From the NCBI GenBank assembly GCA_032718865.1, contig JALUTQ010000004.1:372001-436000 (forward strand): DNA of 64,000 nucleotides, read 5' to 3'. The notes under the pieces are model-generated. The model ran no database searches and was not told the origin of the DNA. It saw nothing but the letters and a program-made list of their open reading frames with translations. The position numbers were made by a program, and so were the translations under genes. How positions within the stretch are numbered: position 1 is the stretch's first letter; each line of letters begins with the position of its first letter. This document shows, one piece after another, positions 24,119 to 35,865 of this stretch. The stretch comes from Tilletia caries (lineage: Eukaryota; Basidiomycota; Exobasidiomycetes; Tilletiales; Tilletiaceae).

Positions 24119-24638
24119 TAGTCTGATCACACCAGACCGTCGCACGCACGTGATGACAAGGACAGGATCCCGTGGAGACGGTCTGGGGACATTCGACGCG
24201 ATTTACTCAGTAGGTGGCCCATACAGAACTGAAAGTTGTCGCAGACACTGCTCCAGTGCCCAACTTTTCGACGATCCGTCAAAAAGAGGCCCGTGCGAGC
24301 TGTCTGGTGTCCGCTCCACACGACGCAGTCAACACGAAGATTAGCTGCTCTACAGCGACGAACACAATGGCCAGCCGTGACACAACAAAGAAGCCAATGG
24401 CAGGGAAAACACCATGGCGCTGCTCCTTGCCTGCTGAGCTCGCGGCAGCGCTGTCTTTGTGCTGATTTCGTTTGGCGAAAATGGAAGCTGAGAGGAGGAG
24501 AAGTGGGCCTTCAGACGGTGTTGGGTCAAAAAGTTGCAGGCACCTTCCAATTGAATCGGGTCGAATGTCCCCAGACCGCGTACGCGGTATAGTGCTTTAG
24601 CTCATTTGAGAGTTACAAGGTCTGGTGTGACCAGACTA
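24119..24638 (+). mobile_element. MITE, non-autonomous relative of the 7-kb element
   Basis: A 520-bp element with TIRs. The left end reads TAGTCTGATCACACCAGACC; the reverse complement of the right end reads TAGTCTGGTCACACCAGACC. After this outer block the two ends diverge for about 40 bp, then share an inner block (GGTCTGGGGACATTCGAC). A perfect 10-bp direct repeat, CGTTTGCGGT, flanks it at 24109-24118 and 24639-24648. Both ends, including the parts that differ left from right, match the respective ends of the element at 28304-35329. The interior does not match and has no convincing gene, so this is a deletion/replacement derivative mobilised by the larger element's machinery or a relative. 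Confidence 0.88.
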
Positions 24639-27564: not shown

Positions 27565-28197
27565 TCACTTCGTTATCGTCGTTACTGGAACCGCAACCGA
27601 GCCCTCCTGCGGTCCGAGGCGCTCTGATGACATGCGGCAGGACGTTGTCCAAGATCGTCCTGTCAGGTTTTGAGCCGAGCCCGACGTAAGCGTCGACCCA
27701 GATTCCACGAGCTGAGTTCGAGTTCTGAGGTGGGTACATTATACGCACCCGCCCTCACAGCTTGTTCAGATTGACGCCTTTCGTCCCTCAGACCGAGTGG
27801 AGCCAAGCAAGATGCGTTCATCTGGGCGGGCGGTCGCGTATGCACTATCTACCTCCCGTATGAGTTCGAGCCCGCCGTGTGGCGTGTGTATCAACGCCTA
27901 CGTCGAGCTCGCCGGCAATTCTGACAATATGGCTTTAGTCAAGTCCTTTGACGGACGTTGTTCGAGCGCCTCGGGCCGCGGGGGAGCTGGGCTGAGGCTC
28001 GGGTGACGGCTCTCTCAGAAAATATCAATGTGAGGGTCGGCGTGCCCATGCTGGCGTCGATGGGTTATCGTTATGTACCTCCGCTTGCGTAACGTTTTTC
28101 TTCTCTCTCCCATAGAGAAGTGGCATAGTGGCGAGCGTGGGAAAATGAGCAATGTTTGTTTCTCTCGGCAAGTTTCTTTGTTGGACTTTTCTAATGG

Positions 28198-28239
28198 CCG
28201 CCCCGGGGCGGCTCGGAGCCTTTGGCCGCCCCGGGGCGG
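28198..28239. repeat. Two identical GC palindromes
   Basis: CCGCCCCGGGGCGG occurs at 28198-28211 and again at 28226-28239, 28 bp centre to centre, each a perfect 14-bp palindrome, about 65 bp before the left end of the 7-kb element. Confidence 0.85.
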
Positions 28240-28551
28240 GTACGTATGGAGAATGTTCTTAAGCCCGCCCCCCACCCTTCAACGCGCCCCAGGTTCCCGC
28301 CCCTAGTCTGGTCACACCAGACCGTCGCACGCACGTGATGACAGGACAGGATCCCGTGGAGACGGTCTGGACGCACTCGACCCAGTTTTGGCTGGAAGTC
28401 CCAATTACAACCGACCCAACTTGTCACCACATACGATTTTTTTCTCTTTGTAAGGCCCGATCATGATAACCAGATCCGGACACTATAAGTCTCCAACCAG
28501 TGATCGCAGTACGCTCCTCGCCACCACTCACCAGGCTCAGCAGCCTGCTGG

Positions 28552-31500
28552 ATGCCATCCGTCGTCACTCTCGGCTCTCTCGGACTCTCGCCCAGCTGTG
28601 ACTTGTGAGTAGGCCGTAGGGGACGTGCTGCGCTTGTCATTATGCCCAGCTGATCCTTTGCCTCATGCTTTGACTCCCATCGTACAGAACAGCGGCCTCC
28701 GACGCAACTGTCGCGAGACTGGACGCCTTCCTCGGCACAGCAACTGTCGCGCTCTCCCGCCTACGTCTCTGCCCTCTGGACGGCCAGTGAGTTCTTTGTC
28801 GCCTTATGCTTGCATCATTGAATGCCAAAGCACACCGTACTGAGCCACGCATGATCTACAGCTCTCATCACACAGCTATGCCCGGGACACCTCAATCATC
28901 AAGCGGAACGTCTCGGACGCCTTTGGCCGCCATAGTCAGCGTTCCACAGCAAGCAGCATCCATACCTCAAGCCGCCACTGCCGCTGTGGTTGCCCTTGCG
29001 CTCGCACTCGACGTCGATGAAGAAGATGGTTCGTCTCGGGGCTCAAAGGTCAGTATCTCGGTGTCATGCTGGGTCATCCCACGCCTCAAACCACATGCAG
29101 CTGACCGACATCATTTCCTTCTCTTTGTGTGCCAGAGACCTCGTTTAGACTCGTACGATCTTCCCCACGGACCAAGCTGTGCGCTACGCGGTTCGGATCA
29201 GGTGGAGAATGTGTGAGTAGATGGGACTGGTGCAACGCGGACGCGCTCCTATCTACGTTGCGTACACAGACGCCCCGCGCATGTTGAATGTTGATCACTG
29301 ACAAGTGACACTCCTACACATTGTTCTACAGTTCCCCTTCCTTGAACAATGATCAGATTGGCGCAGATGCTTTGTGTGCGCTCGCGCAGAGCCTCTCTGC
29401 CCATGAACCACGCCCCTCTGCCGCACCTCGCCCGCCATCTGCAGTGACCGAGCTCCCTCACGCTCGGCACGGACCCGACTCAGCACCAGAAGCAGCAGCA
29501 GCGCCGACGACGGCGACGGTGATGGGTGCAGAGTCAGTTCAAGCGTCCGGAAGTTCGGCGGCGCTGCCGGAAGAAAGCACCAATAGCATGAAACGCAAAC
29601 GTGAGCTATCCCTTCACCCCTCCCTAGTCGTCGTGTGATTTTTGTGAATGAACCTCCTTCAATCTTTACACTTTCTGATACACACAGGATCGGAGCGTAG
29701 CATACATGTATCTCGATCATCCGCAAGCCAGTTGCCTCCGCTACACGTCCTCACCGCGGCAGTGCGCGCTGCCATGCACAACATGAATTTTATACCGAAG
29801 CCATGGCAGGTCGAGACCGTGTACCGCATCATCGCTGGGATGGACGGCGTTGTTGCCGCCGGGACGGGCTCAGGCAAGAGCATGATCTGGTACTACATAC
29901 CACTCATACTGCCAAAGGCCAAAATTCTCGACATGACCGCACTAAAAGAGATCGAGAAACAGCAGGTAGGCATGGTCGATGGTAGTGAATCGTCTGCTCT
30001 CAGCCTGTCACCATGCTAGGCTCTGATTTTCTGGACATCAACAGGTCGAGTTGCTGCGCGCAGCTGGTATATCGGCAGTCGCACTTAACGCCGACACTTT
30101 GAACACAGAGGTCAGTGTGCTGAATGAGTGTCTATGAACTGAATTTCTTGGGCTAGGATGATCTGGGCACTGACAAATATGGATGTATGCACTTTACATT
30201 TTACAGTCTTGTCGTCGGGCGCACAAGCAAGACAAAAAGGGAAAGGGAAAAGCATCCAGTCCTTTACACCTGGTCGAGAACGGAGCCGCCCAAATCGTCT
30301 TTGCCTCTCCGGAGATGCTGTTCAACAACAGCAGAGTCAGTACAGCTGTGACCGGGAGCAGATGGGCCAAAGACCTCTGCGCCATCGTGGTTGACGAGGC
30401 GCATGTCGTGTATGATTGGGGCATAGTCAGGTCCAATTCCAACAAGGCTCCATTTCGGCCAGAGTTCGACAAGCTGGCTGTGCTCCGGGCCAAGTTTAAC
30501 TCGAATGTTCCGCTCCTCGCGATGTCGGCAACTCTGAATGGCCCATCCCTACCCGCTATCTGTACAGCCCTACAGTTCGGCCGACTGCCATTCTTCGCAC
30601 TGGATGTTGGGAAGGAACGAGACGGGTGCGCGTACGATATCCAGGCGTTCCAGCATCCGATCTCGTCGTTCCTCGACCTCGTCGAAGTTATCCAACCAAG
30701 GCAAGGGACGGGCCAGTTGCCGAAAACGATCATATACGTCAATTTCAGGGATAAGGCGGTGTCGATTCTGCAGGTTCTTCAGAAACATCTCCCTCCCGAA
30801 CTTCGAAACAGCATCGCGACGTTCACGGCCGCCGACACGACAAGCCAGAAGCGATGGACGATGAATGGTCTGTTAGCCGGCACGATACGGGTCGTCATTG
30901 CGACAGAGGCTCTTGGCATGGGAATCGATCTACCGGACGTGGACATGGTCATTCAGTGGGAGCTTCCCAAAGACTTCAGAGCCTTGGTTCAACACTTTGG
31001 ACGGGGTGCTCGAGGTCCGCAATCGCGTGCGGCGGCTCTCTTGCTATGTCCAACCTGGGTGATTCAATGCAGGGACGCATTCAAGGCTGGCCAAGGTCGA
31101 GAAGCATCACAGGCTCCAGCGCCAGCGCCTACTTCAAGTCTTTCTACGCGGTTGCAGCAGCAGTGGTCGAACCTCGATGAGCATCTGAAAGTATGGCTTT
31201 TGACGCCCGGTTGCTTGCGTTCCGCCGTCGGTCGCCTCACTCGATTGGACTTTGCGCCGGTCATGCAGACTGTCGAGCCGTTCAGGACGGCACATCCTGC
31301 AATCTCCTCACTTGCAATTGGCACGGGACCGGTCTCGGATACCCAGTCCTGCTTCTACTGGCGCAACACTTTGGCACAAGAGACACACGCCGAGGCCGAC
31401 AGAGCCAATCCTACTTGTTGCTCTCAGTGCACGGAGGGCAACTCTGTACAACGAGCTCCAGTGGAGCCCAGCGGCATCAGGGCGGCAGCGCGTCTCACTG

Positions 31501-31916
31501 TTCCTCCCGCTCATGTCGATACCGTCGAGCTCTGTCGCGATCTGGGTCGTGAGGTATGGAAGTGGAGACAACAGATCTTCAAAAGCCGATCAGGTGTGGA
31601 AGATTGGCAAACGGCCCGGTCTGTGATGCCAGACGAAACGCTGGGTGGTCTCATCGACAGAGCACCTCGCCTACTCGCGCGCGCTGTCCACAACGACGTT
31701 ATTGACGAACACTATACTCGCAGTCTTCTGGGTGATTCTTCCGGCATGTCAGCGAACCACATCTCCGAATTGCAGCCCATTCTTGAAGTATGGGCCCATG
31801 CCAGTCTCACGCTGCCCATTGCTACTCGACTGACTCGGAATGGCTGGGTATCCAAAGGCCAGTCCTCTGACGTCCACAATGATGACGATGCTCTCACGGC
31901 AGCGATACTAATTTGA
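28552..31916 (+). CDS. RecQ-type DNA helicase encoded by the 7-kb element
   Basis: Eight exons: 28552-28604, 28688-28786, 28862-29048, 29136-29212, 29332-29600, 29688-29965, 30045-30110, 30207-31916; about 912 aa. All junctions keep frame. The first 230 residues are Ala/Ser/Pro-rich and unrecognised, ending in a basic KRKRSERS patch. The superfamily-2 core has motif I AAGTGSGKS (about residue 290), motif II DEAHVVYDWG (about 406), motif III LAMSATL, motif V TEALGMGIDLPDV and motif VI QHFGRGARG. A Cys pattern follows (PGCLRS, then PTCCSQC), as in the RecQ zinc-binding region. DEAH and the GMGID block place it near RecQ and telomere-linked helicases. All catalytic motifs are intact, so it is probably functional. 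Presumably it unwinds DNA during transposition or repair of the excision site; that role is inference from location. Confidence 0.82.
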
Positions 31917-31985
31917 AACTCAGTGGTGACTGGTGAGTAGTACATTGATCATTCTTCTTCTTGTGTACGCGCCAATAATTTATCC

Positions 31986-34900
31986 TCATTCCTCATCTGC
32001 CATTAGTTCCTCTTCAGCCAGGGCCCACTCCAGCTCCTCCTCTTCCTCCCTTCGCAGCCACGCTTGATGCCTGTGATCTCGCTCCGACGATTGTATGTCA
32101 CCGTCGCTGAAAACATCCGGATCATCTTCCATATCGTCTAGTGAGTCCATCTCGACGTCTTTGCTGGGGTCGAACGATGTCTCGTTCTGATGATCGTTGT
32201 CGTCGTCCGAGCTCGTCAAGCCATCGAGCCTGTCCCACGCTTTCCGCACCTTGGTCCACCGACGTAAGCCCCTCGCCCGCAAATACAACAAACCCCGTTC
32301 GAGAGCATCGTCGCCGCACTTCGCCGAAACCAAGTCTGCGAGCAGATCTATTCCACTCGGCACTCCGGCAGCGTTTTTCCTTTGGCCGTTGGGCTGCTCG
32401 CTGAGCCAGTGTCGCATCTGAAAGTCTACCCTGCCGTGCGTCAAACAGTCGATCTTGTTGTGCCAAATTCGAAATCCGCTCGATGTCTTTGACAAATTTG
32501 CTCTCTCTCTCCAGATTTCGGCCGTTCTCGTCGAACAGGTACGCATGTGCGCCGTGTAGCGACCTGGAGATCTCGCATACTGCGGAGAACGAGTCTCGCA
32601 ACCGCGCAACAACTGTTGCTGCTCCGTGCGTAGTATCGGTGCGCTGAGAGATTGGGATCCGTGAGTCAGCCCAGATACTGAGAAGCAGAGTGTATACACA
32701 GCGTGTAGCTTTGCCACTGACCTGTAGTTCCTTGTTCAGATGTTCTTGATAAAGATCTGCCCCGATGAAGCTTTCACGTGCTCCGAAGCGATTGATGAGC
32801 CGAGCCGCAGCCAGCGTACGCCATGTATCAGCAGGAAGCACCTTATGGGCCCAAATGTCGTCAAGGCATGCCTGTGAGTACTGATGCTTCCCGACGCCGG
32901 CGAACGCGATGGCCAGAAACTTCTGCGCGGCTAACATTCTTCCAACGTCCCCTTTGCGACAGGCGTCGTCCCACTCCAGCGCCAAGAGGGTATCCCGAAG
33001 AAATCGACGTGCGTCCAGGCCGACCTCATCCTGACAGGCTTCGAGAGCTTGTACCGAGGAATCGCTGAACACCGTCTCCCACACACCGTCAACCAGTTCG
33101 CGGATCGCTTCAACGCTCGTGGGGGTCCATTTCGCCAGATCCTTTTTTTGTTTGGCCAGTTGTGTCCTACCGGCAAACCGCAATCCCAAGACAACAATGG
33201 CAAAGAGTAAGTCCTCACACTTCAGGATTTCAGAGGCCTGGTCCTTGGCGATGATCCAGGCGACTCACCGGAAAAGGTAACGAATCCACCCGCTGAATGT
33301 GTGCTTGATCAAATTCCAGGCTTCATTGTAAAGTGGCTCTTCCTCTCGCAACGCAGATTTTCCGCGGCGTAGCGCATCACGAAGACGCTCGAGGCTGGCG
33401 GCATATCCTACTTTATTTGTTGCGAAGTGGATCTTGAAGATCGCCCAAACCCAATTCAAGTGCAAATGCCAGGGAGCTGAGGAAGAACGGACAAAGTTGT
33501 ATATGTCTTCCGCTTTGACATGCTGCCGACGTGCCTTCAACCCTGCTTCAACATTCCTGTGAGTTTTCAGGTCTCCGACAACGAGCAAGACGTTTCCCTC
33601 TGGCAATACGCTGGTACGGAGCAGCTCCCACTTTGTTGCTTCAGGCGCAGATTGATCGGCCTGGGAAGAGGGTACGTTGGTCGGGACTTCTACCTCGTCG
33701 TATATGCGCAAAGTGATTGAGCTGTCCTCGAGCACGGCCAGATTACCGTCTATGCTCCCTTCGTTTGCCTCGATCAAAGGAAGAGGAGCAAGCTGCCATT
33801 GAGCTGCTTCGATTTCGTCCAGACGATGCGCGTTTTTGACAGGCTTCCTTATATTCCCGCAGAAGTTGAATTGTACGCTGTGTATGCTTGTTTTTGAACG
33901 TCGATAGATGCCTTCTTGACATCCAAAAGCTCTCGTGCCAGGAAGTACTGCCCAGCGCTTCGAAGAAAGGCACTTTTGCCCATGAATTCGTCCTCGTCCA
34001 AACTGCGCGGGGCGTCAAGGGCGGAAAGGATGGTAGTGGAAAGTGCCGCAGAAGAAAAAGACTTTGGAAGCTGGACATACGTGCGACTTGTTAAATTGAC
34101 CATTCGAGTGTTCGAAGTGACTTGGTTTGATCGCTCTTGCACGTATATGTCTACATTGTCGTAGAGAAGAACGTGAACGGCGTCGACATCCTTCATCAGG
34201 GACTGAGCTTTCGCAAGTGCCAGTTTATTGAAGTGCACCAAATGACGCGAGCTGGTGTCCCGACTGGTAGCGACTCCAAGGCGATTGAGCATTGTTTGTA
34301 TGCTTTTCGGCGCATGCTTGAGCCTAAGGATGAGACCGAACACAGTCTGGAATCGATTCATACGCTCGCTCCTCAGGTTCAACGCGATCGAAAGGCAAAC
34401 AACGACGGCCTGTACGTTGAAGAACAAAGGTTTATGAGCTATGTGACATAGCTGCATACACCACTCAGTCACTCACATTATCTGATTTCAGTGACCATGT
34501 AGCACCCTCCTCCGTACTGATTTCGCTCCGCTGTGGACCATACGCGGATGCATCGCCAACGCCGCAAAGACGTTCCATGATGCGGACTGTGACAGGTAGA
34601 TGTTGTTCCATTAGGGTGCGCAGATAAAGGAGTTGATCTGTTTCTGGAGCACTGGCATCTCCTAAGAAGTCGGAAGCTCGGAATCCTGGCTCGTGGGACG
34701 CCTGATCTTTTTCAACAGTGATCCTTTCGAGCAATATATCGGCCAAACCCTTGCCGTATGTGATCGCCGCCTCGTCCTCAGTGCTGAATACCGCTCTGCT
34801 CAATAGACGAGTGCATTGTAGAGGACCGTATTGCCGGCCGGGTCTGTAGAGAAGCCAGTTGGAGCGCTGGCGCTGGAGACCGACGTCCGAACTTGTGAAA

Positions 34901-35160
34901 AACTCGTCCAGAAAGTCGGAAAGCGAGAGTCCCACATCTGCCATGGTATCATGGACGGCCAGAACCCTCTGAAGGCGCGACATGCGGGCCCTTCTGTTGA
35001 CCAAATGTAAAGGTGATGTTAGTCGATTGGATCATGGACCAAACTGCACTTGCAACCCTCCTCCGTGTGACCAATACTGCTGGCGGCAGACGGGCAAGAC
35101 AAACTTGGCTGTAAAGGATGTGCGCCATACTCACGGGGGATGATCTTCTTGCGTCGTCAT
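31986..35160 (-). CDS. DUF6589-like protein, candidate transposase of the 7-kb element (probable frameshift)
   Basis: Minus strand, proposed exons 35160-35135, 35076-35050, 34993-34477, 34409-33900, 33843-33269, 33166-32722, 32643-31986; about 915 aa. Introns are 58, 56, 67, 56, 102 and 78 nt. Recognisable DUF6589-style blocks are LLYDNVDIYVQ (about residue 274), LLVVGDLKTHRNV (about 451), then WHLHLNWVWAIFKIHF and a long helical region (LALEWDDACRKGDVGRM). The two Asp after hydrophobic strands are what an RNase-H-fold DDE/D nuclease would show, so I read this as the transposase; the third acidic residue is not certain. The C-terminus is an acidic tail. The frame changes by one base near an A5/T5 run at 32374-32378: upstream reads ...SDATLAQRAAQ, downstream ...GVPSGIDLLADLVSAK. 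Either this copy is broken there or the run is miscounted. The fourth intron has a weak GTTCAA donor. Confidence 0.62.
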
Positions 35161-35865
35161 GTCTGTGTGGAGAACTCAATGGTTGGAAGGGAAGAGTAGA
35201 GAATGGAGGGCTTGGACAGGTTTTGCTCGACCACTTCCACTCAGAATCGGGTCGAGTGCGCCCAGACCGCGTACGCGGTATAGTGCTTTAGCTCATTTGA
35301 GAGTTACAAGGTCTGGTGTTACCAGACTACTCTGAGGCCCTCCCGAGTGGTGGATCCAGAGGGACTCAGGAAGGTTGCTTACATAAGCCCCGATCCCAGA
35401 GGAGCTAAAATTGAATTTCAAAAAATAAAAATTCCGCATGCGGGAATGGATCACACGACTGGCCACCACACCCACTTCCACACATACATATTACCACCTA
35501 TACTATCAGCGTTTGATACAGAAATCACTCTATTTGTTACAATATATACCAAAACATATTTTTGTTGTCGACGATAAATGGCATTCTGTCGCGCTGAGCT
35601 GGTGCAGTGGATGAAGATTTGACGACGGCGCGCAACAGCACTCTTTTACTATGCACAGTTATGAAGATATGAAATTTACTCCTAGCCACTCATGACCTTG
35701 AGACTCCAGTGTGACTCCTAGGCCTCGTTTCCCTAGGGCTCCGGGGCGTTTTTCTGTAGTCTTTGTAGTGCCTTGCGGCTCTAGCATCTCGGGAGTCCCC
35801 GACTTCATTTGGCGGTGTAGGTTGAGGGCACGGGGTTACCGATCAACCATCAACCTCCTCGCAAC

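What the first reader, a model, noticed from the sequence alone, without database searches (positions are those of the whole stretch)
28304..35329. A 7-kb DNA transposon pairing a RecQ-type helicase with a DUF6589-like protein
Two convergent multi-exon genes fill the whole space between matching long inverted repeats, with only about 70 bp between their stops. The helicase keeps all SF2 motifs and a RecQ-like Cys pattern. The partner has Asp-bearing strands (LLYDNVDI, VVGDLKT) as expected for an RNase-H-fold transposase. DUF6589 proteins and RecQ-like helicases are both known to be expanded in basidiomycete genomes. I know of no description of them as the two genes of one TIR element, though I cannot search the literature here. 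Architecture and convergence suggest a replication- or repair-assisted transposition system.
Basis: partly seen in the sequence, partly recalled or inferred. Interest (0 to 1): 0.88.

Follow-up and report, generated by a model that had tools for sequence, protein, structure and literature searches.

The report
Fungal jumping gene carrying a helicase
This is a real mobile DNA element of a smut-like fungus that carries its own cutting enzyme and its own DNA-unwinding enzyme; elements of this sort are already known, but the cutting enzyme belongs to a protein family still labelled 'unknown function'.

Summary
In detail: a 7,026-bp element with matching inverted ends encloses two convergent genes, a RecQ-like helicase and a DUF6589 (PF20231) protein, stops 69 bp apart. 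It is a transposon: its terminal motif occurs 134 times exactly in the 38.1-Mb genome (control 0), 27 of 35 paired copies have perfect target-site duplications (26 of 10 bp, one of 9), and a nested insertion shows the empty site. Of 48 DUF6589 loci, 42 lie convergent to a RecQ-like helicase within 3.3 kb (0.16 expected under simple random placement), in about a dozen lineages; three further lineages examined have inverted ends and 9-bp duplications. A predicted DUF6589 core resembles DDE recombinases (Hermes, P element, Tn5, Transib, RAG1), with an invariant D-D-E. This fits AcademH: fungal Academ elements are reported to carry RecQ-type helicases, and AcademH makes 9- or 10-bp duplications. 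The novelty claim therefore fails; the mobile-element and RNase-H-fold claims hold. Possibly new is the link DUF6589 = DDE transposase of helicase-bearing Academ elements; no held paper mentions DUF6589. The window copy itself lacks a duplication and has frame damage. The helicase's role is inferred, and no Academ transposase could be compared by sequence.

The parts
28304..35329 (.). whole element, 7,026 bp
   Evidence: 99.4-99.6% identical to four sister copies, one of them a deletion derivative; boundaries by TIR and by the flanks of 35 paired copies
28304..28323 (+). outer terminal inverted repeat, helicase-side end; itself a near-palindrome GTCTGGT-CAC-ACCAGAC
35310..35329 (-). outer terminal inverted repeat, transposase-side end
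28351..28399 (+). subterminal inverted-repeat block with the GGTCTGG motif (candidate transposase binding region)
   Evidence: 78% complementary to 35233-35281; function inferred
35233..35281 (-). subterminal inverted-repeat block, partner of 28351-28399
28878..31916 (+). RecQ-like SF2 helicase gene, several introns; the start codon is a guess, the stop is sure
29795..31016 (+). helicase core: PKPWQVETV (29795), AAGTGSGKS (29855-29881), DEAH (30390-30422), SAT (30519-30539), motif V (30891-30929), QHFGRGARG (30990-31016)
31350..31430 (+). Cys cluster CFYWRNT ... CCSQC at the place of the RecQ zinc region; in the window it has no Pfam match, a related lineage (L079) gives RecQ_Zn_bind at 17 bits, under its cut-off of 25
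31986..35160 (-). DUF6589 transposase gene, several introns; the start codon is a guess
33268..34014 (-). DUF6589 N-terminal part (PF20231 positions 53-209)
32125..33264 (-). DUF6589 C-terminal part (PF20231 positions 211-366)
34146..34169 (-). LLYDNVDI: first catalytic Asp candidate
   Evidence: D in 19 of 19 rows of A2 that cover the column
33562..33582 (-). VVGDLKT: second catalytic Asp candidate
   Evidence: D in 21 of 21 rows
32734..32757 (-). DLYQEHLN: catalytic Glu candidate in a late helix after a long helical stretch
   Evidence: E in 22 of 22 rows
33167..33268 (-). probable 102-nt intron (GTGAGT...TAG) that holds an in-frame TGA; borders placed by eye
   Evidence: the related lineage F2 reads straight through here; splicing not tested
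24119..24638 (.). 520-bp non-autonomous relative with the same ends and a perfect 10-bp duplication CGTTTGCGGT
   Evidence: L012

Best explanation
An autonomous-type DNA transposon of the AcademH kind in a Tilletia-like basidiomycete. Shown by sequence: inverted ends, copies, 10-bp (rarely 9-bp) target duplications, an empty site, both genes conserved. Inferred: the DUF6589 protein is a DDE transposase with an RNase-H core and a long helical insertion (Hermes/RAG-like), which binds the repeated GTCTGG motifs at the ends, cuts the element out and joins it to a target with a 9-10-bp stagger. The RecQ/BLM-like helicase is an accessory enzyme of the element; my favoured role (about 0.4) is to help copy the element back into the donor gap by synthesis-dependent repair, as BLM is recalled to do after P-element excision. 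The second choice (about 0.3) is remodelling of the strand-transfer complex, which would go with the longer stagger of AcademH.
Confidence: 0.83

Rival explanations
1. A separate superfamily of RecQ-bearing DDE transposons, not Academ, that reached the same design independently (as KolobokH did).
For: No sequence link to a named Academ transposase could be made; 0 held papers mention DUF6589; RecQ has been recruited more than once, see KolobokH (PMC9587614).
Against: Both published marks of fungal AcademH that could be tested, recQ_fam helicase and 9/10-bp duplications, are met.
Confidence: 0.13
2. Two host genes enclosed by chance between unrelated repeats.
For: The window copy by itself lacks a target duplication.
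Against: Sister copies at 99.4-99.6% identity elsewhere with 10-bp duplications; the gene pair recurs in about a dozen lineages.
Confidence: 0.01
3. The element moves replicatively (copy-out or Helitron-like strand displacement) with the helicase peeling one strand. This rival is about mechanism and can hold together with AcademH membership.
For: Helicase present; end-proximal inverted repeats stand out at 9 of 10 ends examined.
Against: Fixed-length target duplications and a DDE fold point to paired strand transfer; a DDE replicative route is not excluded. No HUH/Rep domain was found in the pieces scanned.
Confidence: 0.12
4. Mutator-like element (MULE) with a captured helicase.
For: 9-11-bp duplications are also typical of MULEs (recalled).
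Against: No MULE or other named transposase domain in the Pfam scans; DUF6589 only; helicase next to DUF6589 in 42 of 48 loci, which is not casual capture.
Confidence: 0.03

Closest known systems
AcademH lineage of Academ DNA transposons (Kojima 2020, Mob DNA 11:15; not held, known here through passages of PMC10045372, PMC10799480 and PMC6416283)
   Same: RecQ-type SF2 helicase, 9- or 10-bp target duplications, fungi including Basidiomycota; TIRs (recalled for AcademH)
   Different: Not tested: sequence match of the transposase. The link to PF20231/DUF6589 was not found in print. Gene order and end palindromes of published AcademH could not be compared.
KolobokH (PMC9587614, passages read)
   Same: Fungal DNA transposon with a RecQ helicase
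   Different: Helicase lies downstream of the transposase domain there; here it is a separate convergent gene. TTAA duplications (recalled) against 9/10 bp here.
hAT (Hermes), P element, Transib/RAG1
   Same: DDE RNase-H core with a long helical insertion before the last Glu (the insertion in these families is recalled)
   Different: Duplications of 8 or 5 bp and no helicase (recalled); no match of the DUF6589 profile to solved sequences at E 1

Membership tests
AcademH | encodes a helicase (recQ_fam/DEAD in fungal Academ) | tested here: met
   definition from PMC10045372 and PMC6416283
AcademH | target-site duplications of 9 or 10 bp | tested here: met
   27 of 35 paired F1/F2-type copies, 6 of 8 copies of three other lineages, empty site
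AcademH | terminal inverted repeats (recalled) | tested here: met
AcademH | DDD/E transposase (Academ is listed among DDD/E superfamilies in PMC9587614) | tested here: met
   by predicted fold and invariant D-D-E only, no biochemistry
AcademH | transposase groups with Repbase Academ proteins | not testable with these tools
   Kojima 2020 and Muszewska 2017 not held; no Repbase
AcademX | XPG nuclease and 3-4-bp duplications | tested here: not met
   9/10-bp duplications; no nuclease domain in the pieces scanned. Duplication length and 'nuclease' from PMC10045372; the XPG label is recalled
[quoted passage not shown] TTAA duplication (recalled) | tested here: not met
   separate convergent genes; 9/10-bp duplications without a shared TTAA
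hAT | 8-bp duplication (recalled) and hAT sequence | tested here: not met
   no hAT Pfam match; the fold is alike
MULE (MuDR) | MULE transposase domain | tested here: not met
   Pfam scans give DUF6589 only for this gene
Helitron | no target duplication, HUH/Rep protein (recalled) | tested here: not met

The most novel reading that the evidence does not exclude
DUF6589 (PF20231) as a whole is a widespread, unrecognised DDE transposase family whose elements as a rule bring their own BLM-like helicase to restore the donor copy after excision, making the element independent of the host's gap-repair helicase; its ends carry alternating-orientation motifs and palindromes on which the two proteins act together.
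Probability: 0.3. Interest if true: 0.62.

Novelty: new member of a known kind. Interest (0 to 1): 0.4.

Why it matters
It gives a biological identity to a Pfam family labelled 'unknown function' and explains, for this genome, why DUF6589 and RecQ-like genes are both expanded: most of them are the two genes of mobile elements, not host repair genes. Counts of RecQ helicases in such fungi should be corrected for this, as PMC6416283 already warns for Academ in general. It also gives a system with recent copies, short derivatives and known targets in which to ask why DDE transposons repeatedly recruit helicases or nucleases.

Tried and rejected
Rejected: chance enclosure of host genes (duplications around sister copies; pairing). 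Rejected: KolobokH, hAT, MULE and Helitron membership (see Membership tests). Led nowhere: profile search of solved structures by sequence with A2, 0 matches at E 1; viral contigs, 20 pattern stretches and no relative; BFVD fold search, nothing below E 0.001 (best row, a Pandoravirus hAT-type protein, E 0.0045); three protein searches gave ten relatives, all Tilletia, with only about 8,000 candidates scored each time, so host range beyond Tilletia could not be shown. The second structure job was of low confidence (pLDDT 54). Longer 'copies' L009, L011, L017, L010 and L028 looked like gene-bearing derivatives but are 530-bp non-autonomous copies with other DNA inside them. An in-frame TGA at about 33265 first looked like a break but is probably intronic. 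My first count of ends (186 + 179) counts most ends twice; I recounted with 0 and 1 mismatch.

Dropped rows: of 40 regions fetched by place gave 35 paired ends; L034, L039, L041, L042 and L047 had no second end in the fetched stretch, and L044 only a weaker reverse match (2 mismatches) that I did not use; these six are not counted. The regions were chosen from the first 100 listed of 134 exact ends. The pairing of 48 DUF6589 loci uses gaps below 6 kb; 2 of the 44 with a neighbour are same-strand and more than 5.6 kb away and are not counted as pairs. Genome search counts are lower bounds by the tool's own word. The shuffles keep base content only.

Full report
What is there. The element runs from 28304 to 35329. 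Its outer 20 bases are 95% complementary and a 49-base inner block is 78% complementary. The + strand holds a RecQ-like helicase gene with stop at 31914-31916, the - strand a DUF6589 gene with stop at 31986-31988, 69 bp apart. Pfam gives Helicase_C 51.2 bits and DUF6589 95.3 and 62 bits on exon-level pieces; NCBIfam gives recQ_fam TIGR00614 first (89.4 bits, under its cut-off of 219.8; 169.7 bits for the relative in L079). The best solved relative of the helicase is BLM (E 5.2e-14).

It is mobile. In the 38.1-Mb genome G000 the terminal motif occurs 69 + 65 times exactly (control 0 + 0) and 103 + 100 times with one mismatch allowed (control 1 + 0). With two mismatches (186 + 179, control 7 + 6) most ends count twice, since the end is nearly palindromic. 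I fetched 40 regions by place and found 35 paired ends. Perfect direct repeats flank 27 of 35: 26 of 10 bp and one of 9 bp (L016). Eight have none, the window copy among them; in L038 a 10-bp repeat is offset by 4 bases. In L021 a 521-bp copy sits inside another; without it and one copy of the 10 bp, the outer copy is 532 bp and aligns end to end (98.5-99.1%) with 6 of the 11 short copies compared; the others shown match only at one end. This is a related empty site. The 26 ten-base targets show only a mild preference for G/C at both edges.

The family is young and has hangers-on. Copies of the window's lineage (F1) are 99.4-99.7% identical over about 7.0 kb. Short copies of 520-534 bp share about 80-200 bp at one or both ends with the full-length elements. 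L020 has lost about 2 kb including nearly all of the main helicase exon, with a 2-bp overlap at the break, and still has a perfect duplication.

The pair is the rule. The genome has 75 PF20231 matches, which I merged to 48 loci, and 65 helicase matches, merged to 55; both are lower bounds. 44 of 48 have a helicase match within 6 kb; 42 are convergent with gaps of 0.56-3.23 kb, 2 are same-strand and far, 4 have none; 13 helicase loci have no DUF6589 neighbour. Random placement gives a mean of 0.16 and a maximum of 3. Copies are not independent: by DNA and protein likeness I count, by eye, about a dozen lineages among the 30 loci fetched (one search compared one strand only). Helicases of the paired loci go down to 25% identity with the window's, so the pair looks old.

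Other lineages have the same build. F3 (L079), F5 (L083, L084, L089/L090) and F7 (L082, L087/L088) have inverted ends beginning TAGGCTC, TAATCAC and TAGTCTC, lengths of 6.8-7.3 kb where measured, and perfect 9-bp duplications in all six of these copies, read by eye; L080 and L081 lack one recognisable end. Of ten ends from five lineages examined for end-proximal inverted repeats, 9 score at a level reached by 6 or fewer of 200 shuffles; one, the window's transposase end, does not stand out (68 of 200).

Both genes are kept. Between F1 and F2 dN/dS is 0.20 and 0.18 for the helicase and 0.15 and 0.11 for the two transposase halves, with dS of 1.5-1.7, so the ratios are rough.

The window copy. 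It lacks a duplication. Its left flank matches one dispersed repeat and its right flank another; a copy of the right-hand repeat in L011 continues into sequence absent from the window's left flank. Recombination between two insertions is a likely cause, not shown. Its transposase frame is disrupted against sister copies, while for example L025 has a 401-aa frame over the same stretch.

What is known. PMC6416283 (passages read) says fungal Academ copies carry DEAD (PF00270) and recQ_fam helicase domains and are often annotated as host genes. PMC10045372 (passages read) says AcademH makes 9- or 10-bp and AcademX 3- or 4-bp duplications. PMC10799480 (passages read) says AcademH occurs at low copy in Basidiomycota, Ascomycota and Mucoromycota. 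PMC9587614 (passages read) describes KolobokH with a RecQ helicase and lists Academ among DDD/E superfamilies. PMC8290104 (passages read) noticed putative non-autonomous Academ elements in Marasmius oreades. Kojima 2020 itself is not held. The term DUF6589 is in 0 of 5.39 million held papers. The kind is therefore known; the assignment of PF20231 to it was not found, within that library and that one search term.

How it probably works. Shown: ends, duplications, empty site, gene pair, conservation. Inferred: the transposase binds the repeated GTCTGG motifs, cuts, and joins with a 9-10-bp stagger; the helicase helps refill the donor gap from the sister chromatid (0.4), or remodels the strand-transfer complex (0.3), or serves a replicative route (0.12). 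The BLM likeness, the one deletion derivative with a 2-bp overlap and the repeated recruitment of RecQ by different DDE transposons favour the first, but none is decisive.

Host.

Noticed in passing
window 24119-24638: A 520-bp non-autonomous relative of the element with a perfect 10-bp duplication (CGTTTGCGGT), 3.7 kb left of it.
   Followed up: yes
window 28176-28303 and 35330-35820: The two flanks of the element belong to two different dispersed repeats with many copies in the genome.
   Followed up: partly
L019 (inside the element, near element position 180): A 450-bp insert with palindromic GC-rich ends (CGGCGGTGATCAGTTGCGGG...) in a sister copy; probably another short transposon family.
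   Followed up: no
L009, L011, L017: 530-bp non-autonomous copies with 2-3.5 kb of other DNA inside them; L009 and L017 hold stop-to-stop frames of 267-606 codons that were not identified.
   Followed up: no
G000:C21:395842-395972: Three terminal motifs at exact 56-bp spacing on the same strand, a small tandem array of ends.
   Followed up: no
G000 C3:1466037, C40:1373302, C40:1395899, C40:1731921: Four DUF6589 loci without a helicase match nearby; decayed copies or helicase-free relatives.
   Followed up: no
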